Shown here piece by piece: positions 30,352-39,313 of a DNA stretch of 64,000 bases. This DNA is from Deltaproteobacteria bacterium. Its GTDB lineage: Bacteria > Myxococcota_A > UBA796 > GCA-2862545. The number at the start of each line of letters is the position of its first letter. Within the stretch, counting starts at the first letter, position 1. The position numbers and the translations under genes were made by a program. The notes beneath the pieces were generated by a model. That model was not told the origin of the DNA. It was given only the letters and a program-made list of their open reading frames with translations, and ran no database searches. The DNA lies in assembly GCA_007693595.1 (NCBI GenBank), contig REDI01000032.1, positions 1 to 64,000 on the forward strand, given 5' to 3'.

Positions 30352-31185
30352 GTGAGCTCACGCTTCAAGATCGCGCTGGTCGTCCTCGCACTGGGGGCTG
30401 GCTGCAACCCCAAGAAAAAACCCGTCGCCGAGATCACCCAGCCCGCGATCACGATCCTCGAGCGGGTGCAGGCCCGACCGAGCCCGAGCCCCCTCCAGGC
30501 GCGCTTTCAGATCAAGGTTCGCTCCAAGCCCTTGGGCCTCGGAGGCACGACCGGAGGTGGGATCCAGGTGGTGCGACCCGGTCGCGCCCGCCTCGAGGTC
30601 TTCGGACCCTTCGGGGGCTCCCTCGCGAGCCTCACCGCCGATGGCGAGCGGTTCGCCGCCTATATGAGCCGCGAGCAGCGCCACCTCCTCGCCCCCGACG
30701 CCGAGGCCCTCATCCGCGAGGCCACCCGCGGCGCCATCGGCCTCGACGGCGCCATCGGACTCCTGGTCGGCGATGTGCCCTTCGAGGCAGGAGAACTTCA
30801 AGAGACCGCCGTCCTCCAAGACGAGGGGCGGGTGCGCGCGAGCTACCTCGGCCCCGATCAGGTCCGGGTCGATCTCGCTCTCGATCCCGAGCAGCTCACA
30901 CCCGTAGGGTTCGAGGCCCGCGATCGAGATGGCGAGCCGCTTATCCTGGTCACCTACGAAGGCTGGCACGCCTTCGGCGAGACCCTGCTCCCCCAGCGGG
31001 TCGAGGTCACGGTCCCGGCCGTCTCGCTCTTCGTGAGTCTGCGCTATCATACTTGGCAGCAGCCCGATCAGCTCATGACCTACGACACGCGCGCGCCTGC
31101 GGGGCTTCAGTCCGAGCCGTTGGTCGAGATCCTTCGGCTGTCTCTCGCCGCCCTCCGCGCCGAAGAAGACGAGGCCGCCCCTTGA
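30352..31185 (+). CDS. LolB/DUF4292-like outer-membrane lipoprotein
   Basis: From GTG 30352 (GGAG five bases upstream) the product is 277 aa: signal ending LALGAGC, then a half-barrel strand pattern with RFQIKVRSK, V-R-P-G-R-A-R-L-E-V-F-G-P-F-G and the late W-H-A-F-G-E-T-L-L-P-Q-R-V-E-V. This is the order seen in LolB and DUF4292 proteins, which accept lipoproteins at the outer membrane. A longer open frame upstream runs antisense through pyrB and is not used. Fold call is tentative. Confidence 0.7.
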   Translation: MSSRFKIALVVLALGAGCNPKKKPVAEITQPAITILERVQARPSPSPLQARFQIKVRSKPLGLGGTTGGGIQVVRPGRARLEVFGPFGGSLASLTADGERFAAYMSREQRHLLAPDAEALIREATRGAIGLDGAIGLLVGDVPFEAGELQETAVLQDEGRVRASYLGPDQVRVDLALDPEQLTPVGFEARDRDGEPLILVTYEGWHAFGETLLPQRVEVTVPAVSLFVSLRYHTWQQPDQLMTYDTRAPAGLQSEPLVEILRLSLAALRAEEDEAAP

Positions 31186-31560: not shown

Positions 31561-32253
31561 TCAGTCCTCGATCGGATCGCCGTACTCGGGGTAGCAGGTG
31601 CGTAGGCCGTCGCGCACCCACCGCAGCCGGAAGCCACTTCGGGAGCCGAGGCGCTGGGCATAGCGGACCTCGAGGCGGTAGACGCCGGTCTCGAAGTGGA
31701 CCGACAAGGACTCCGGCTCGAAGGCCTCACGGTCGGTGAGCTCGGCGATGACGCGGTCGTTGACCATCACCCAGGCGTCCGAGGCTGCCCCCAGCACGAA
31801 CTCGTGCTGACCTCGTCGGGTGATGCGGAGCCAGCCGATCCAGCGTACGCCGTAGTACAGAGGGTCGTCTTCGAAGCCCTCGTCGACCGGCCACCAGCCC
31901 GGCCCGAAGTCCGTGGAGGCATCGTAGCGCTCGAAGGCCAGGGGAGGGTCCCACCAGTCGAGATCGAAGGGCAGCTCCAGCTCGGGGGGCTCGACGTCGC
32001 TGTCATCGGTGGGCTGCGAGGGCTCGGGGGGACGCTCGGCCAGCGGGCGCTCCACGTCGGGGTGATCGAGGTGGAGGTTGGTGTAGAGCCCGCGGAACCC
32101 AGGGAAGCAGTTGTTCCAGTCTGACGGGGGCGTACCCCAGAGGTCCAGGGCGCGCTCAGGCGGATCGGCCACAGGGGGCAAGGGTTGGCGGCGGATCCCG
32201 GTCTCGCCACAGGCCCACAGAAACCACACCGAGAGCAACAGCGTCGACCTCAT
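31561..32253 (-). CDS. PA14-like lipoprotein, last gene of six-gene exported operon
   Basis: The 230-aa product has a lipoprotein signal (WFLWAC) and a D/E/P-rich linker. The domain that follows has RWIGWLRITRRGQHEFVLGAASDAWVMVNDR, L-S-V-H-F-E-T-G-V-Y-R-L-E-V-R-Y and F-R-L-R-W. This strand pattern is that of PA14/fibronectin-like carbohydrate-binding domains. It ends with a C-Y-P-E-Y segment. The ATG overlaps the stop of the cytochrome lipoprotein gene by 4 nt. A cell-surface binding role is inferred. Confidence 0.75.
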   Translation of the reverse strand: MRSTLLLSVWFLWACGETGIRRQPLPPVADPPERALDLWGTPPSDWNNCFPGFRGLYTNLHLDHPDVERPLAERPPEPSQPTDDSDVEPPELELPFDLDWWDPPLAFERYDASTDFGPGWWPVDEGFEDDPLYYGVRWIGWLRITRRGQHEFVLGAASDAWVMVNDRVIAELTDREAFEPESLSVHFETGVYRLEVRYAQRLGSRSGFRLRWVRDGLRTCYPEYGDPIED

Positions 32254-32657
32254 CGGCCCTCCACCACGGCTTTGTCGGGGTAGACCGTGCAGTGCAGCCA
32301 CTCCTCGAGCATGTCGAGCTCCTCTTCGGTCGGCCCTCCGCCCGGCGGCATGAGCTCGGCGCTGTCGATCCCCTGGCGGGCCCCGGTCAGGGTGCGCTCC
32401 TCGATGCGCTCCGCCCACAACAGCACGCCCCGATAGGTGTCGAAGTCGATGCCGACCGGCGCGTCGCGCCGCTGGGCGGGAGGGATGATCGAGCTGTGGC
32501 ACCCCACACAGTGCGTGTCGACGAAGCCTTTGCCCCAGTTGTCCCAGGTCAAGGGCTCGCTCGGGTTGCACCGGGCGTCCACCTCAACCTCGTCGGGCTC
32601 ACAGGCGGCGAGCAGGATCAAGGCGCACAGGGCGGCCAGAGAGGAGCGCATGATCAC
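32250..32657 (-). CDS. c-type cytochrome-like lipoprotein (one CXXCH)
   Basis: The 135-aa product has a strong lipobox (LILLAAC) and one heme-binding motif C-V-G-C-H (about residue 50) followed by S-S-I-I-P-P. A Met in ELMPPGGGPTEEELDML is a plausible second heme ligand. This is the single-heme module often found beside DUF1501/DUF1549 genes. The GTG start at 32657 overlaps the DUF1501 stop (GTGA). An ATG at 32651 is the alternative. Confidence 0.8.
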   Translation of the reverse strand: MIMRSSLAALCALILLAACEPDEVEVDARCNPSEPLTWDNWGKGFVDTHCVGCHSSIIPPAQRRDAPVGIDFDTYRGVLLWAERIEERTLTGARQGIDSAELMPPGGGPTEEELDMLEEWLHCTVYPDKAVVEGR

Positions 32658-33952
32658 TCGCGGAGCAGGGCCGGGACGGTCGGGACACCCGGCAGCCAGC
32701 GGTCGCCGTTGATGCCTGCCAGCCGAAGCAGCGTGACGCCGACGTTCTCGACCCCCATGATGTCGCCGGCATCGTTGGGTTGCCCGGACGAAAAATCGGT
32801 GGGGAGGCTGATGAAGCGGTCGTTGGTCGCTCCGATCACCCGATCGCCCGCGATGCCAGAGCCGGCGACGAGCATCGAGGTGTAGGGCCAGTGATCGCGC
32901 CCGCGCGAGCCGTTGAAGCGGGGGGTGCGACCCAGCTCGCTGGTGGCGACGACGGTGACCTCTTGGGAGAGGCGCGTGGCCGAGGATCCGGGGGTGCGAT
33001 CCATGCGCTCGAAGAGGCTGTCGAGGGCGCCGAAGAAGGCATCCATCTGGACGCCGACGTTCTGGTTGCCTCCGTGGGTATCCCAGCCGCCTGGGATGCG
33101 AATCATGGCGGTGCGGGTCAGGCCCAGGCGCATGAGCTCGAGCGACATCTGCGCCTGGGCGAGCAGGCCCCGGGCCTGTTGGCTGAGCCCAGCCTCAAAG
33201 CGCCGGCCCTCGAGCTCCATCGAGCGCTCCAAGTTGCCCAGGAGGTCTTCCATGCGATCGCGCCCCTGGCCATCGAGGCGAGCTGAGAGCCGGCCGGCCC
33301 GGCGGAAGAGGGCGGCATCCATCATGCTGTCGGCGGGCTGCGAGAGGTTGGGCGAAGGCCGATCGACGCGGGTGTTGTAGCTTCCGTCGATCAACTGCAA
33401 GAGCGAGCCGCCGCCGCCGCGAACCACCGCCGCCCCGAGCGGGCCTGGATAAGCGGGCCCGCTAAAGACCAGGTGAGGCATGGGGTAGTCGACGGTGCCG
33501 TTCGCCGCGATGATGGTCGGCCAGTCGGGCCGCTCGGAGGCGGTCGTGCCGGTCATCATCCACTGGGTGCCCGACTCGTGGCCCGCCGTGTGCACGTTCA
33601 CTCCGCGAAGGATGGCGCACCGTCGCCCCCAGCGCCCGAAGAAAACGTCCATGTTCCGCCGGTCGGGTCCGGTCGACCAGCTCAGGTTTCCAGCGCTCGC
33701 GAGGCTGGTCTCGGGATCCATGTCCGTGCCGTCGACCGGGCTGAACCCGTCGACGTCGAACTTGGGATCGAGGGGGGTGGCATCCCAGCCCCCGCTCGCG
33801 AAGAAGAAGAGGAACTTTCGGTCTCCGCGGGCCGAGGCCCTCGCTTGCTGAGCGAGGAGGGCGTCCATGGAGCCGAGCATGCCGATCCCAGCGCAGGCCG
33901 CTGCGGCCTGGATGAGTCGACGTCGGGTCAGCGTCAGATCAAGGCGCGACAT
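32654..33952 (-). CDS. Tat-exported DUF1501-family protein
   Basis: The 432-aa product begins with a twin-arginine signal (LTRRRLIQ, then AAAACAGIGMLGS). The mature part has the DUF1501 core: FLFFFASGGWD, H-E-S-G-T-Q-W-M, PGGWDTHGGN and SELGRTPRFNGSRGRDHW with G-S-G-I-A-G-D-R-V-I-G. The family is related to alkaline-phosphatase/sulfatase folds, and in Planctomycetes and myxobacteria is co-encoded with cytochrome-containing DUF1549 proteins. Enzymatic activity is not established. GGAGG lies five bases before the ATG, in the gap after the DUF1549-like gene. Confidence 0.88.
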   Translation of the reverse strand: MSRLDLTLTRRRLIQAAAACAGIGMLGSMDALLAQQARASARGDRKFLFFFASGGWDATPLDPKFDVDGFSPVDGTDMDPETSLASAGNLSWSTGPDRRNMDVFFGRWGRRCAILRGVNVHTAGHESGTQWMMTGTTASERPDWPTIIAANGTVDYPMPHLVFSGPAYPGPLGAAVVRGGGGSLLQLIDGSYNTRVDRPSPNLSQPADSMMDAALFRRAGRLSARLDGQGRDRMEDLLGNLERSMELEGRRFEAGLSQQARGLLAQAQMSLELMRLGLTRTAMIRIPGGWDTHGGNQNVGVQMDAFFGALDSLFERMDRTPGSSATRLSQEVTVVATSELGRTPRFNGSRGRDHWPYTSMLVAGSGIAGDRVIGATNDRFISLPTDFSSGQPNDAGDIMGVENVGVTLLRLAGINGDRWLPGVPTVPALLRE

Positions 33953-33965
33953 GGGGGCCTCCTGC

Positions 33966-35654
33966 TCAGTAGAAGATCAACATAGGGTCACGAAGGACGA
34001 CGCTCACCACCCCGGCCCAGGCGGACTCGGGGCGGGCGTCGAGACTGTAGAGCTGCTTCCACATGGCGATGAGCTCCTCGACTTCGGGGGCCTCGATCGG
34101 CTCCCCGTCGTCGTCGAGAGGCGCGTCGAGGGGGACGCCCAGCACCTCGAAGTAAAGCTGCTCGATCTGGGCCTTGAACGCGTCGCGATGAGTCTCGGGG
34201 CGATCGTCGCGGCTGACGTAGCGCAGCAAGATGGGATCCTCGGCGCGGTCTCGGGCGAGATCGTGGCTCGCGACGTGCCAGCCGGCTGCCTGCGCCAGTC
34301 GTTCCTGGACGAGCGCCAGTCCGACCGAGGGGTCGTAGTTTGGCGCGGTCACGTAGTCGCCATCGGTCCCGCCAGCCAAGACGCCGACCCCACCGATGTT
34401 CCGCGCGAGCACGGGTCGCCCGCGGATGGTCCAGCGGTAGCCGGTCTTGGCGGCGATGATGCCCTCGAGCTGGGCCGGAGTGACCGTCTTGAGCACGGGG
34501 AGGTGCTGGAGCTCCGGGGCGTCTGCGCGCTCGGCGCGGTAGGGGCGCGAGGTGACGATCGAGCGCACCATCTCGCGCACGATGAGGCCGCTGTCTTCGA
34601 AGGCGCGCCGGTGGGCGAAGCGCTCGTCGCGGTCGATGTCGCTCAGGTTTCGCTGAGAGAGGCCCGCGAAGAGGGTGTCGGTGGCGCACTGGACGAAGCG
34701 GGGGTCTTGGGCGAGCTGGTGCGCCATCTCGCGGAGGTCACTGGTGGGTACGCCGAAGTAGGCTGGCGAGACGTGCGTGCCCATCTGGTAGCGCCACAGG
34801 GGCTCGTCTTCGGGGCGGTAGGTGGTCTGCTCGAAGAGGCCCCCCTCGACCTCCCACCAGAAGCCGAAGAAGTGGCTCGAGAAGGAGTCGAGGGTGGAGT
34901 GGCAGGACTGGCAGGCCTGCGTGGTCTGGATCACGTCCTCGGGGTCGCCCGAGGTGAGCGTGTCGATCTGGGTTCGGCTGAAGCTCACGGGTCGCGAGAG
35001 CTGGTCATCGCAGAGGAAGACTCGGCTGACGGTGTTGGCGCGGTGCCGGTTGCTGTTCACGCCGGCGGAGGGGTAGCGCTGCCAGAGCGTCGTGCTCGAG
35101 AGCACGCCCGCGAGGGGCCGGCCGTCGTCGTAGGCCGTGACCTGCCAGCCGCTCTCGCCCTCGGGGTAGGGCAACCCCCACATGCGCGCCACGATGGGAT
35201 CGGCCATGGAGTAGTCGGCGGTCAGCACCTCGGAGAAGGGGAGGTCGTTCTCGATGACGTGACTGATGAGCTTGAGGGGTTCATCCCCGATGCTGTCGGC
35301 GATCCGATCCCGATCCATGCCGCGCATCCCGGCCTCGGCCGGGTTGAAGTAGGTCGAGCCGTTTCGGGTACGGATGGAGTAGTTCCAGATCTCTTCCATG
35401 CGATCGACGAAGCGAGGATCGTAGAGGTAGCGGTCGACGAAGCTCTCGTAGGCTTCGGGGTGCTCCTCGATGAAGTCGAGCGAGCTGGCGCTGGGGTGCA
35501 CGCCTCGGAGGTCCACGCTCAGGCGGATGAGCTGCCGACGCGGCGAGAGCAGGGTCAGCCCGTCCTCTGGCTCCTCGGCCGAGGGCGAAGCGCCGGGCTC
35601 TCCGCAGGACGCGGTGAGGCCGAGGGCCAGGGCAGCAGCGAGGGCGAGTCTCAT
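33966..35654 (-). CDS. Large lipoprotein with CxxCH site, DUF1549/DUF1585-like
   Basis: From ATG 35654 the product is 562 aa with a lipoprotein-type signal (LGLTASC). N-terminal L-L-S-P-R-R-Q-L-I-R-L-S-V-D-L-R-G-V-H-P and F-V-D-R-Y-L-Y-D-P-R-F-V-D-R match DUF1549-like modules that recur in PSCyt proteins. Residues near 285 hold C-Q-S-C-H-S-T-L-D, a heme-type site that in this family joins a DUF1588/1585 C-terminal half (F-E-D-S-G-L-I-V-R-E-M). It likely pairs with the DUF1501 protein downstream. The start overlaps the upstream gene by 4 nt. Confidence 0.8.
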   Translation of the reverse strand: MRLALAAALALGLTASCGEPGASPSAEEPEDGLTLLSPRRQLIRLSVDLRGVHPSASSLDFIEEHPEAYESFVDRYLYDPRFVDRMEEIWNYSIRTRNGSTYFNPAEAGMRGMDRDRIADSIGDEPLKLISHVIENDLPFSEVLTADYSMADPIVARMWGLPYPEGESGWQVTAYDDGRPLAGVLSSTTLWQRYPSAGVNSNRHRANTVSRVFLCDDQLSRPVSFSRTQIDTLTSGDPEDVIQTTQACQSCHSTLDSFSSHFFGFWWEVEGGLFEQTTYRPEDEPLWRYQMGTHVSPAYFGVPTSDLREMAHQLAQDPRFVQCATDTLFAGLSQRNLSDIDRDERFAHRRAFEDSGLIVREMVRSIVTSRPYRAERADAPELQHLPVLKTVTPAQLEGIIAAKTGYRWTIRGRPVLARNIGGVGVLAGGTDGDYVTAPNYDPSVGLALVQERLAQAAGWHVASHDLARDRAEDPILLRYVSRDDRPETHRDAFKAQIEQLYFEVLGVPLDAPLDDDGEPIEAPEVEELIAMWKQLYSLDARPESAWAGVVSVVLRDPMLIFY

Positions 35655-36691
35655 GGGGCCTCCCCGAGGTTTCTTAGGGTGAACGCGTAGTCTTGGATGC
35701 GTGGGTGGTCGAGCAGGCCATCCCAGAGGAAGTCGAAGTCCATGCAGACCTCGAGGGTGGGCTGCTCGAGACCTCGGAGGTAGAGCGTGCCGCAACCATC
35801 ACAGCCCGTGTAGGGCTCGTTGTCGTACTCGGGATCCTGGGGATCTCCGCCGCGCCGAGGCTCGAAGACCAGGTCGTACCAAAAGGCGTCTTCGTCGCGC
35901 AGCCCGATCCACCCGGTGGGCTCGAGGGTGCAGTCGTCGGGACCTGCCCCCAAGGGGCCCGAGAACTCGAGGTCTACGGCGAAGCTGTCGAAACGATCGG
36001 CGATCCGGTGCTCGAAGAGGTAGAGATTGCCGCGGGTTTCGAGGGTGTCGGCGTCTCCGCCGGTGCTGCGGCGGTACAGGCCGACCCTGAACCCGCCGGG
36101 TGTGGGGGAATCGTCGAAGATGAACTGGCCCGTCGCCACGCCCGCGATCCGGCTGGTGTAGGTCCAGGTCTCGGACTCGCTGGTCGTGGTGAGGCTCAGG
36201 CTGTCTTCGGCTTCTCCCACGAACTCGTAGAGCATCTCATCGTCGCGCGAGACGGCGCCATCGCCCAGGAGCAGCCGGGTCGCGTCGGCGGTCCGCCCCA
36301 AGGTCGTGTTGGGATCGCCCATGGCGGTGAGGCTGTTCTCCCAGTAGGAATAGCCGCTGTAGATGGTGCCATCGCTCTGCTGGCAATAGTCCGCCCAGGA
36401 GCGCCCCTTGGCGCGGGTGCGGATGTCGATGGAGTCCACGTCGGGGTTCCCGAGGTACAAGTCGGGGCATCCTGGTTCGGCATGGTCTAGGGCGTCGAGG
36501 TGCCCGGCCCAGACGGGTCGCGTGTCGACGCCCGCGATGAGCCGGAAGGCATCGGCGAAGGCCTGGGGCAGGTCCACCCCCTCGAGATCGGGGGGAACCA
36601 GCTCGACCGGATCCGAGAGCACGGGGGCCTCGCGCTCCTCTTCGGGGGCGGGGCAGCCCAGCAGCAGCGCCAAGGTCAGGACCCGCCTCAT
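35651..36691 (-). CDS. Hypothetical lipoprotein with CDGC motif
   Basis: The 346-aa product has lipobox LALLLGC and a long, beta-rich mature domain: repeated aromatic/Gly-containing strands and a late C-D-G-C-G-T-L-Y-L-R-G. The upstream gene carries a similar C-D-G-C-D-L-T-Y, so the two share a Cys-pair element. No family is recognised. The 4-nt overlaps with both neighbours (ATGA) make it part of the six-gene operon. Confidence 0.7.
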   Translation of the reverse strand: MRRVLTLALLLGCPAPEEEREAPVLSDPVELVPPDLEGVDLPQAFADAFRLIAGVDTRPVWAGHLDALDHAEPGCPDLYLGNPDVDSIDIRTRAKGRSWADYCQQSDGTIYSGYSYWENSLTAMGDPNTTLGRTADATRLLLGDGAVSRDDEMLYEFVGEAEDSLSLTTTSESETWTYTSRIAGVATGQFIFDDSPTPGGFRVGLYRRSTGGDADTLETRGNLYLFEHRIADRFDSFAVDLEFSGPLGAGPDDCTLEPTGWIGLRDEDAFWYDLVFEPRRGGDPQDPEYDNEPYTGCDGCGTLYLRGLEQPTLEVCMDFDFLWDGLLDHPRIQDYAFTLRNLGEAP

Positions 36692-37506
36692 GTGTCCTCC
36701 TCGGGCTCAAGGGAGACTCCGATCACGTCGGTCCAGGTCAAGAGGTACTCCGGGGGGCCAGGGGGCTCTGTGGGCACTCCGCTGTCGCTGTCGCCTTCGA
36801 GCGCTTCGACCTCGCGCTCGGCGATCCAGAACCACGGGGTCCACACGCCGACGTTCGCGTAGTCGTAGTAGGCGATGCCTTCACTCCAGCTCCAGCCGAT
36901 CCGCAGCACCGCGCCGTCCGCGGGGAGGTCGGGGTCGAAGCAAGGGCCGGGATCCCCTTCGGTCACGGTGAAGGTGATCTCGTAGGTGAGGTCGCAGCCG
37001 TCGCAGGGGTGCTCCGACGGCTCGCCCGCCATGGTGTAAACGACCTCACAGTGCAGGGGGTCGTCTTCGAGGAGCTCCCAGGGGCGGAGCTCGTCTTCGG
37101 AGTCGACGGGGTCGGAGTCGACGGGGTCAGAGTCGACGGGGTCGGAGTCGGAGTCCACGGGATCGGAGTCGGTGTCTTCGTCTTCGTCGTCTTCGGGGGA
37201 CGGGAGGGCGTAGTCGACGAACTCGTAGACCACGAGCTCCCCGAGGAGCGAGGGCGGCTCGCCGGCTTCACCATCGGGGAGCTGGAAGCTCCCGAGTTGG
37301 TAGATGTAGAGCCAGTGATCGGGCTCGCGTCCATCGGGCGCGACGCCGGTGTCGGTGGGAAACTCGACGTCGGAGTCGAACCCGCCGCTCGGCCAGGAGT
37401 CGGACTCGTCGGGGAGGTCGGGGAGCTCGGTCTGGGAGGCCGGGTCTTCGCAGGCGAGGGCGAGCGCCGCGAGGAGGATCGGAAGAGGGGCCAGGGTTCG
37501 AAGCAA
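36688..37506 (-). CDS. Hypothetical lipoprotein, first gene of the exported operon
   Basis: A TTG start at 37506 with GGGAG six bases upstream gives 272 aa beginning L-R-T-L-A-P-L-P and a lipobox LALAC. An acidic Asp/Pro/Ser linker follows (DSDPVDS repeats, coded by 37099-37170). The C-terminal domain has C-D-G-C-D-L-T-Y and an aromatic-rich Y-D-Y-A-N-V-G-V-W-T-P-W-F-W-I. The ATG at 37518 is out of frame. Function unknown; it probably anchors a domain at the outer membrane. Confidence 0.65.
   Translation of the reverse strand: MLRTLAPLPILLAALALACEDPASQTELPDLPDESDSWPSGGFDSDVEFPTDTGVAPDGREPDHWLYIYQLGSFQLPDGEAGEPPSLLGELVVYEFVDYALPSPEDDEDEDTDSDPVDSDSDPVDSDPVDSDPVDSEDELRPWELLEDDPLHCEVVYTMAGEPSEHPCDGCDLTYEITFTVTEGDPGPCFDPDLPADGAVLRIGWSWSEGIAYYDYANVGVWTPWFWIAEREVEALEGDSDSGVPTEPPGPPEYLLTWTDVIGVSLEPEEDT
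37099..37170. repeat. 15-bp tandem repeat in the lipoprotein linker
   Basis: Three near-identical 15-bp units (GGAGTCGACGGGGTC) run from 37099 to 37143 and decay into related units to about 37170. They code for the D-P-V-D-S linker of the 36688-37506 lipoprotein. Slippage at such a repeat could vary linker length in frame. Confidence 0.8.
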
Positions 37507-37870
37507 GCGTAGCTCCCATGGGGACTGGAGAAGGGCACAACTCCACCGCCTCACTCTACCATGGCCCGTGACCCTTCGTGACCGATGGCGGCGAGGGACA
37601 GGGCTTCGAGCTCTGTCATCGTTGTGGATAAAGCTGAAATGAAGAGAGGTCTGTGGAGATACTCTCACGGTGGGTGAAAAACTTTCGGCGGGCTGTCTGT
37701 CAGCCAGCTCACACCTGGGGCTGGAGTCGGGGAATCTCTTCGGAGTGAGAGGGATCGCGCGCGGCTGCACGGGACCTCGGAGGACGGGGTCCAGGGACCT
37801 TGCTCTTCGAAGCGCTAGGCTGAAGCGCTCCGCCTCAGCTATGATGCGGCCAGCCATGAGAGGAGTCCGC
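37507..37870. promoter_or_regulatory. Divergent intergenic region with a DnaA-box match and direct repeats
   Basis: These 364 bp contain no gene. The sequence TGTGGATAA (37623-37631) is a perfect DnaA box, in a locally AT-richer stretch from about 37615 to 37680. Nearer the rightward gene, GAAGCGCT is repeated at 37809-37816 and 37822-37829, followed by TATGAT (37840-37845), a five-of-six -10 match 26 bp before the start codon. No good -35 is visible. The leftward operon presumably starts from the other end. Confidence 0.4.
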
Positions 37871-39313
37871 ATGCGCACCCTGACGATGATGGCCGCCTTG
37901 GCGTTTCCGGCGGTAGCCGGAGCGGTCGAAGTCGAGCTTACTCCTAATGCAGACGTCCGATCCCTCACCCAGAGCCTGAGCCCTGGGGCCATCTACACCT
38001 TCAACGATGGGGTCTACGAGCTCCCTGATGAGTGGTCGATCTCGGGCGAGGGCTCCTCTTCAGACCCCATCATCTTCCGCGCGGCGCGCGGGGCGCGGCC
38101 GGTCATCCGACTCACGACCTCCGGCAGCCGAGCGCTGCGGATCCACAGCAGCGCCCACCTCGTGATCCAGGGGCTCATCTTCGAGCACGATGACGAGCGC
38201 TACGCCGAGACTAACGGCAACGGCATCCGGGTCGAGAACTCCGAGCACATCCGCATCGACGACTGCGAGATCCGTCATACGGGCGGCACAGGTATCAGCC
38301 TTGGAAGCGACAACTCCGCCGTACAGGTGACCCAGACCGAGATCCACAACACCCGCGACGGCCATGGGATCTACGCAGGGTGCGGCAACGCGTCTTGTTG
38401 GGTTCAGGACAGCCTCTTCGCCAATAACCTCATCTACGACATCAAGGGGCGCGACGAAGAGATCCGGGTCGACGGCATCCACATCGCCCCAGGCGGCCAA
38501 GGCAACCAGATCGTCGACAACATCCTCGTCGAGGTCAACCGGCACGGCATCGTGGCGCACTCGACCGAGTTCGGGTCCCAGAACCTCATCGAGGGCAACG
38601 CGATCTGGGACACCGGCCAGGATGGACTGTGGGTCAGCGGCGCGGCGCGCGTTCGGAACAACCTCGTGGCCTTTACCGGCCGTCACGGCCTCTACAGCGA
38701 GAACAACCGCGAGTCGCTCGAGCAGCTCGTCGTCTCGCACAACAGCTTCGTCGCGACGGGCAGCGCGGCGGTGCGCCTGCGGCAGTGGCAAGGCCTCAGC
38801 GGGATGGTCTTCGCGAACAACGCGCTGGTTAACCCCGTCGGTGATGCCTTTCAGGTCGATAATGAGAGCCTCGATGAAGGCATCGTCTTCTCCGGCAACG
38901 TCATCACCGGCAGCGTGAGCGGGGTCACCCTCGAGTCGGGCGGATTCGTTCCAGGTGGCGGCTATACCGACTTCGTCGACATCGACGCCCTCGACTTCTA
39001 CCCGCGAGCGAGCTCCGCGCTCCGCGACGCCGCCGATCCCTCTGGGGCGGCCTTCGTCCCCTCCATCGACTTCAACGGCTTCGATCGAAACGGGGACCGC
39101 CCTACGGTCGGCGCCTTGGAGTACGTCTTCCAGACCAACCCGGGCTGGCCCCTCTCCCGCGACTTCAAGGCCTTTGAGGATCGCCGGATCGACGATGACA
39201 GCTCCGGCGGCTGCTGTGGCGACAACGGCTCGGCCGACAGCGCCATCATGGTCCCGCTGCTCTTGCTCGGGGGGCTGATCAGGCGTCGGCGCCGCTCTGG
39301 CGCACATCGGTGA
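37871..39313 (+). CDS. Surface right-handed beta-helix protein with MYXO-CTERM-like tail
   Basis: ATG 37871 has AGGAG six bases upstream; the product is 480 aa with a signal peptide ending near VAGAV. The body is a parallel beta-helix: repeating N-G-I-R-V-E-N, G-T-G-I-S-L-G and N-L-I-Y-D-I turns, as in pectate-lyase-like/NosD folds. The C terminus has G-G-C-C-G-D, a short hydrophobic helix and an Arg cluster (IRRRRR), the MYXO-CTERM layout for surface anchoring. The last 35 bases overlap the recJ 3' end on the other strand. Polysaccharide binding or lyase activity is possible but no catalytic residues can be fixed. Confidence 0.83.
   Translation: MRTLTMMAALAFPAVAGAVEVELTPNADVRSLTQSLSPGAIYTFNDGVYELPDEWSISGEGSSSDPIIFRAARGARPVIRLTTSGSRALRIHSSAHLVIQGLIFEHDDERYAETNGNGIRVENSEHIRIDDCEIRHTGGTGISLGSDNSAVQVTQTEIHNTRDGHGIYAGCGNASCWVQDSLFANNLIYDIKGRDEEIRVDGIHIAPGGQGNQIVDNILVEVNRHGIVAHSTEFGSQNLIEGNAIWDTGQDGLWVSGAARVRNNLVAFTGRHGLYSENNRESLEQLVVSHNSFVATGSAAVRLRQWQGLSGMVFANNALVNPVGDAFQVDNESLDEGIVFSGNVITGSVSGVTLESGGFVPGGGYTDFVDIDALDFYPRASSALRDAADPSGAAFVPSIDFNGFDRNGDRPTVGALEYVFQTNPGWPLSRDFKAFEDRRIDDDSSGGCCGDNGSADSAIMVPLLLLGGLIRRRRRSGAHR

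What the first reader, a model, noticed from the sequence alone, without database searches (positions are those of the whole stretch)
31561..37506. Six-gene operon of exclusively exported proteins around DUF1501/DUF1549 and heme-type sites
Five lipoproteins and one Tat substrate, with ATGA/GTGA overlaps at four of five junctions. Heme-type motifs occur in two genes, a PA14-like domain in one and paired CDGC motifs in two more. The parts suggest an outer-surface redox or substrate-degrading complex. The core is known from Planctomycetes and myxobacteria, but the combination with CDGC lipoproteins is not one I recognise.
Basis: partly seen in the sequence, partly recalled or inferred. Interest (0 to 1): 0.75.

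Follow-up and report, generated by a model that had tools for sequence, protein, structure and literature searches.

The report
Seven-gene myxobacterial surface heme module
Six neighbouring genes for exported proteins, two of them heme proteins, plus an adjacent gene for a probable cell-surface protein, travel together through a whole order of uncultured Myxococcota, which marks them as one envelope system of still unproven function that includes two protein families no database names.

Summary
Six minus-strand genes (37506-31561) encode five lipoproteins and one Tat substrate, with start/stop overlaps as described. The set is conserved: 12 other genomes keep all six genes in the same order on one contig, and their DUF1501 proteins form one clade in the tree (100/100). 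It is single copy and present in all 19 genomes (of 38 searched) that carry the strict DUF1501 orthologue, and in one other. Gene 4 (DUF1501) has the alkaline-phosphatase fold (Z 18.8). Genes 3 and 5 are c-type heme proteins by motif and family. Gene 6 is a PA14 protein. Genes 1 and 2 match no Pfam or NCBIfam family. The gene-2 family sits next to DUF1501 in 43 of 50 cases, so the core is widespread in the order. Best reading: an outer-membrane, surface-linked complex that binds a polymer (probably glycan) and couples metalloenzyme chemistry to heme electron transfer; the substrate is unproven. The CDGC motifs are not shown to be redox centres. New variant of the known DUF1501/planctomycete-type cytochrome module.

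The parts
36688..37506 (-). g1: lipoprotein; conserved C154, C169xxC172 (CDGC, nt 37005-36994) and C190; no Pfam or NCBIfam family
   Evidence: homologues next to g2 in the relatives' loci
35651..36691 (-). g2: CDGC lipoprotein (motif nt 35803-35792), six conserved Cys in the mature part, all-beta model; a family without a name
33966..35654 (-). g3: lipoprotein with DUF1549/PSCyt2, DUF1592/PSD4, DUF1588/PSCyt3 and DUF1585/PSD2 regions; c-heme motif CQSCH at nt 34913-34899
32654..33952 (-). g4: Tat-exported DUF1501 protein with alkaline-phosphatase-superfamily fold
32250..32657 (-). g5: lipoprotein class I cytochrome c; CVGCH at nt 32510-32496 and invariant MPP (Met103)
31561..32253 (-). g6: lipoprotein with PA14 domain
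37507..37855 (.). 349-base intergenic region between g1 and g7, divergent; probable shared regulatory region (inferred)

Best explanation
The seven genes make one outer-membrane complex that faces, at least in part, the cell surface. g7 (beta-helix, MYXO-CTERM-like anchor) and g6 (PA14) bind a polymer, most likely a glycan. g4, a Tat-exported metalloprotein of the alkaline-phosphatase superfamily (DUF1501), acts on it, for example on a phosphate or sulfate ester. g3 carries a c-heme with no conserved Met or His partner ligand and could be a redox-catalytic subunit that passes electrons to the ordinary class I cytochrome c of g5. g1 and g2 are Cys-rich scaffold lipoproteins; g2 is part of the core. 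Shown: export signals, heme motifs, predicted fold of g4, cytochrome and PA14 families, co-conservation and single-copy linkage of g7. Inferred: physical complex, glycan substrate, hydrolase chemistry, electron flow.
For: Six-gene synteny in 12 other genomes and partial sets at contig ends. Strict g4 orthologues form one clade across five families of the order and one further family of the class (100/100). g7 is single copy and co-occurs with strict g4 in 19/19 genomes against 1/19 without it, and lies within about 6 kb in 15 of 20. g2-family genes lie next to DUF1501 in 43 of 50 cases outside the first set. g4 fold: VIA Z 18.8, rmsd 3.2 over 240 residues to an NPP phosphodiesterase, Foldseek prob 1.00 to LTA synthase; D57, D291, H293, E339, D353 and H354 are kept in at least 97%. 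g5: Met103 in 53/53, CxxCH in 54/54; cytochrome c551 E 3e-5. g3 CxxCH 61/61. g6: nearest solved relatives are the PA14 domains of RsgI3, E 4e-10. Cytochrome c maturation and TatC genes are present in the genome. The window's lipobox +2/+7 residues fit outer-membrane sorting in M. xanthus (PMC3222651). MYXO-CTERM proteins reach the surface through myxosortase and T2SS (PMC11980579). Planctomycete-type cytochromes were linked to sugar-binding domains and sulfatases in Verrucomicrobia (PMC5615132).
Against: No catalytic activity or substrate is known for any DUF1501 protein in the papers held. The canonical 'DH' metal pair of the superfamily reads E-L/M/F in g4, so hydrolysis is uncertain. The glycan link rests on PA14 and beta-helix domains, which also occur in non-sugar settings; in the window's g6 the first Asp of the usual DD pair is Ser. 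No glycoside hydrolase or TonB receptor showed up among the conserved neighbours. The g7 tail was recognised by eye; the NCBIfam scan did not report the MYXO-CTERM model.
Confidence: 0.42

Rival explanations
1. The set builds or modifies the cell's own surface polymer (capsule or matrix glycan) rather than degrading a foreign one; g4 acts like an LTA-synthase or phosphotransferase-type member of its superfamily.
For: Foldseek's best match of g4 is an LTA synthase. DUF1501-DUF1800 pairs travel with chitin synthase in proteobacteria (PMC5122149), and DUF1800 lies next to DUF1501 in 8 of 8 loci of this same order. Single-copy, apparently vertically kept genes fit a housekeeping surface role better than a nutritional one.
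Against: No glycosyltransferase or polymer exporter showed up among the conserved neighbours. Two hemes are hard to place in polymer synthesis.
Confidence: 0.25
2. Surface electron-transfer module: the two hemes pass electrons to or from an external acceptor and the other proteins are scaffold.
For: Conserved heme motifs in g3 and g5 and surface linkage through g7.
Against: Only two single hemes, no porin and no multiheme protein, unlike the porin-cytochrome conduits described in PMC5615132. It leaves g4 and the PA14 protein without a role.
Confidence: 0.13
3. The CDGC lipoproteins g1 and g2 are thiol-redox or metal-relay proteins that form the working core of the system.
For: CxxC plus two further conserved Cys in both families.
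Against: Even numbers of conserved Cys in exported proteins (4 in g1, 6 in g2) fit plain disulfides. g2 members match no thiol-redox family, and g1 and g2 show only a weak match around the motif (p 0.012). The stretch just before the CDGC motif of g2 is low-confidence in the model.
Confidence: 0.1
4. Chance or purely positional clustering of unrelated exported proteins.
For: None beyond the varied domain content.
Against: Conserved order and overlaps across families, single-copy co-occurrence of g7, 43 of 50 g2 linkages.
Confidence: 0.02

Closest known systems
Planctomycete/Verrucomicrobia PSCyt2-PSD1 (DUF1549/DUF1553) + DUF1501 gene pairs
   Same: A c-heme PSCyt protein encoded next to a family of unknown function; many copies in some genomes; function unknown (PMC5615132, PMC2754498; that the partner is DUF1501 is from own knowledge)
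   Different: g3 has a DUF1549 N-terminus on a DUF1592/DUF1588/DUF1585 body; a separate cytochrome c lipoprotein, CDGC lipoproteins, a PA14 lipoprotein and a surface beta-helix protein are added
Myxobacterial DUF1592/DUF1588/DUF1585 + DUF1552 pairs (from own knowledge)
   Same: Same PSD4/PSCyt3/PSD2 body in g3
   Different: The partner is DUF1501, not DUF1552
DUF1800-DUF1501 operons of Proteobacteria (PMC5122149)
   Same: DUF1501 Tat protein with a partner; the DUF1800 profile aligns with the C-terminal half of g3 (p 0.007)
   Different: No heme partner and no lipoprotein partners are described
Alkaline phosphatase superfamily (NPP, sulfatases, LTA synthase)
   Same: Fold of g4 (Z 18.8) and order of the D/H motifs
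   Different: SDHG is SE(L/M/F)G; the nucleophile is not established

Membership tests
DUF1501 (PF07394) | Match over the curated cut-off | tested here: met
   67.3 bits vs 27
Alkaline phosphatase superfamily | Fold | tested here: met
   Z 18.8, rmsd 3.2 over 240 residues to 7mw8_C; Foldseek E 1.9e-4, prob 1.00 to 2w8d; predicted model, pLDDT 78
Alkaline phosphatase superfamily | Canonical two-metal ligands and nucleophile | tested here: inconclusive
   D57, D291, H293, E339, D353, H354 conserved; Ser/Thr122 in 57 of 60; but E-L/M/F replaces DH
Planctomycete-type cytochrome (PSCyt2/PSCyt3 with PSD domains) | Pfam domains and CxxCH | tested here: met
   PSCyt2 in 16, PSCyt3 in 15, PSD2 in 14 and PSD4 in 12 of 17 members; PSCyt3 below cut-off in the window protein; CxxCH 61/61
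Planctomycete-type cytochrome (PSCyt2/PSCyt3 with PSD domains) | Bound heme | not testable with these tools
   needs spectroscopy
Class I cytochrome c (g5) | CxxCH and distal Met | tested here: met
   54/54 and 53/53; 24 of 25 match Cytochrome_CBB3 at E up to 0.1
PA14 domain (g6) | Pfam match over cut-off | tested here: met
   26.8 bits vs 24; RsgI3 PA14 E 4e-10
PA14 lectin (Ca-dependent sugar binding) | Asp-Asp sugar/calcium site | tested here: inconclusive
   DD in the family consensus, Ser-Asp in the window protein
MYXO-CTERM surface proteins (g7) | Cys motif, hydrophobic helix, Arg-rich end | tested here: met
   GCC followed by a hydrophobic stretch and an Arg-rich end in all 12 full-length rows; tripartite motif as described in PMC11980579
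MYXO-CTERM surface proteins (g7) | Match to the curated TIGR model | tested here: inconclusive
   not reported at E up to 0.1, but the model is very short
Porin-cytochrome electron conduit | Outer-membrane porin plus multiheme cytochrome | tested here: not met
   neither is among the seven products or the conserved neighbours; each heme protein has one motif

The most novel reading that the evidence does not exclude
A phylum-specific cell-surface machine in which a DUF1501 metalloenzyme and a planctomycete-type heme protein act together on a polymer, a coupled hydrolytic/oxidative chemistry not yet described, with two new lipoprotein families as structural parts.
Probability: 0.3. Interest if true: 0.78.

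Novelty: new variant of a known kind. Interest (0 to 1): 0.55.

Why it matters
DUF1501 and the planctomycete-type cytochromes occur in many copies per genome in several phyla, and none has a known function. Here is a form that is single copy, has a fixed set of seven parts, is anchored at the envelope and is traceable through an order. That makes a long-open question directly testable: one deletion set and one pull-down in a cultured Myxococcota relative could assign a function to the whole class. It also defines the g2 family as a lipoprotein partner that regularly accompanies the trio, so far unnamed.

Tried and rejected
DUF1501 in the PDB by sequence: no match. g2 by fold: no Foldseek match with E at or below 0.001; VIA gave only generic beta-sheet proteins (apolipoprotein B Z 9.7, rmsd 5.6 over 183 residues; OspA about 6.5), which I do not treat as kinship. 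g1 versus g2 homology: untrimmed, only the lipobox aligns; after trimming, a weak match around CDGC (p 0.012). A second g1-like hit in the genome (E 0.15) was judged chance. TonB/Sus-type uptake loci and the chromosomal neighbours recJ and pyrB: not seen among the conserved neighbours. hhalign with NPP relatives gave no useful alignment; with the sulfatase-like set it aligned the D/H and SDHG motifs (E 4.4e-4). The paper on DUF1501 modules in PVC bacteria (Kamneva 2012) is not held.

Full report
Setting. The window lies on contig C82 of a 4.9-Mb draft genome. Its relatives in the named collection are metagenome-assembled genomes, mostly labelled Myxococcota, Deltaproteobacteria or (uncultured) proteobacterium.

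Observation. g1, g2, g3, g5 and g6 carry lipoboxes whose Cys is conserved in relatives, and g4 carries twin arginines kept in 60 of 60 relatives. None of the window's five lipoproteins has Lys at +2 (inner membrane in M. xanthus) or Ala at +7 (extracellular matrix), the rule of PMC3222651, so outer-membrane placement is the expectation. A few relatives of g1 do carry +2 Lys, so this is not a uniform rule.

Families. g3 matches PSCyt2 (DUF1549), PSD4 (DUF1592) and PSD2 (DUF1585) over their cut-offs and PSCyt3 (DUF1588) below it. g4 is DUF1501. g5 is a weak single-sequence cytochrome match. g6 is PA14. g1 and g2 match nothing. As families, 24 of 25 g5 relatives match the cytochrome CBB3 model, and the g5 profile finds cytochrome c551 at E 3e-5. 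The g5 heme motif and Met103 are invariant in about 54 sequences. The g3 CxxCH is invariant in 61 sequences, with no equally conserved Met or His as second ligand. This allows, but does not show, an open heme.

Co-conservation. I fetched 20 loci around the best g4 relatives. In 12 all six genes are present, adjacent and in the same order; most of the others are cut by contig ends. In genus g10 the g1-g2 pair appears to have moved elsewhere (L058 against L104 in G019). On a maximum-likelihood tree of 58 DUF1501 proteins the window's type and its strict relatives form one side of a fully supported branch (100/100). They come from families f1, f2, f4, f5, f6 of the order and from the class relative f7.

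The core is wider than the six. A g2 profile hits 48 of 63 genomes of the order, but only 42 of 284 sampled across the phylum, of which five lie outside the order. In 40 further loci, 43 of 50 g2-type ORFs have a DUF1501 gene on the same strand within 4 kb, nearly always with g3 and usually with g5; several of the others are cut by contig ends. So g2-g3-g4-g5 is a recurring module with paralogues, while g1 and g6 mark the strict clade. The window's own genome has a single DUF1501 gene, against up to 14 in relatives.

A seventh partner. Clustering all flanking ORFs showed one strong conserved neighbour, the divergent gene at 37856-39313. It encodes a right-handed beta-helix protein (Pfam Beta_helix, E 2.8e-18) with a C-terminal Cys-Cys motif, hydrophobic segment and Arg-rich end, present in all 12 full-length rows of the alignment. 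TraA of M. xanthus carries the same adjacent Cys pair in its MYXO-CTERM, which sends it to the cell surface (PMC11980579). This family is single copy. Among 38 genomes it is present in all 19 that have the strict g4 and in one of the 19 that lack it (G007, an 83% complete draft); Fisher p 1.1e-9. Genomes are related, so this p-value overstates independence. In 15 of the 20 it lies within about 6 kb of the set, sometimes divergent from g1 and sometimes beyond g6, which argues for function rather than inherited order alone.

Structure. The AlphaFold2 model of g4 (pLDDT 78) has the alkaline-phosphatase-superfamily fold: VIA Z 18.8, rmsd 3.2 over 240 residues to an NPP enzyme, and Foldseek probability near 1 to LTA synthases and sulfatases. 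A profile alignment to sulfatase-like proteins of the same genomes independently aligns the D-x-H and S-(D/E) motifs (E 4.4e-4). Asp57, Asp291, His293, Glu339, Asp353 and His354 are kept in at least 97% of 60 sequences, and Ser or Thr at 122 in 57 of 60. The usual DH pair is Glu-Leu/Met/Phe, so I mark metal binding as likely and canonical two-metal hydrolysis as open. The g2 model (pLDDT 82) is a long antiparallel beta structure without a convincing solved relative.

How it probably works. The parts are two binding modules (PA14, beta-helix), a metalloenzyme fold, a catalytic-looking heme protein, an electron carrier, and Cys-rich scaffolds, all expected at the outer envelope. The simplest joint reading is surface processing of a polymer with electrons drawn off through g5. 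The substrate is inferred from domains and from the sulfatase and sugar-binding context reported for such cytochromes in Verrucomicrobia (PMC5615132). Synthesis or modification of the cell's own surface polymer is the strongest rival, because DUF1501 also pairs with DUF1800 next to chitin synthases (PMC5122149), and in this order DUF1800 genes sit beside DUF1501 in 8 of 8 loci. DUF1800 itself resembles the C-terminal half of g3 (p 0.007; the five other families gave 0.4-0.9). That hints that DUF1501 may work with one broad family of partners.

CDGC. Four (g1) and six (g2) conserved Cys outside the lipobox fit disulfides or a structural metal site. No thiol-redox family matches g2 members. I do not support the redox reading of these motifs.

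Novelty. The DUF1501-plus-PSCyt idea is known and unexplained. The seven-part single-copy form, the g2 family as regular core partner and the surface beta-helix partner are new as far as the libraries and papers held here show. I call it a new variant of a known kind.

Noticed in passing
L028 and L030 (records CAMCWU010000099.1, CAMAXZ010000021.1): Contigs titled Klebsiella pneumoniae carry loci that group with uncultured Myxococcota on the DUF1501 tree; the record titles look wrong.
   Followed up: no
L105-L112: DUF1800 genes lie next to a distinct DUF1501 gene in 8 of 8 loci of the order, and DUF1800 aligns weakly with the C-terminal half of g3.
   Followed up: partly
L045, L048, L049, L057, L062 (for example L048:2087-4240 -): A lipoprotein-like protein of about 700 aa lies beside g7; the L048 one has ASH-type, beta-helix and MopE copper-binding-motif regions. 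It is a possible eighth, less constant partner.
   Followed up: partly
L058 and L104 (genome G019), L060 and L103 (G010): In this genus the g1-g2 pair appears to have moved away from g3-g6 and sits with an extra g2 copy on another contig.
   Followed up: no
window 30358-31185 +: Downstream neighbour on the opposite strand: a probable lipoprotein with a CNPKKK start, not classified.
   Followed up: no
genomes G000-G037: Relatives carry 6 to 46 matches to the Phosphodiest family of the alkaline-phosphatase superfamily, the window's genome only 4, just as it has only one DUF1501.
   Followed up: no
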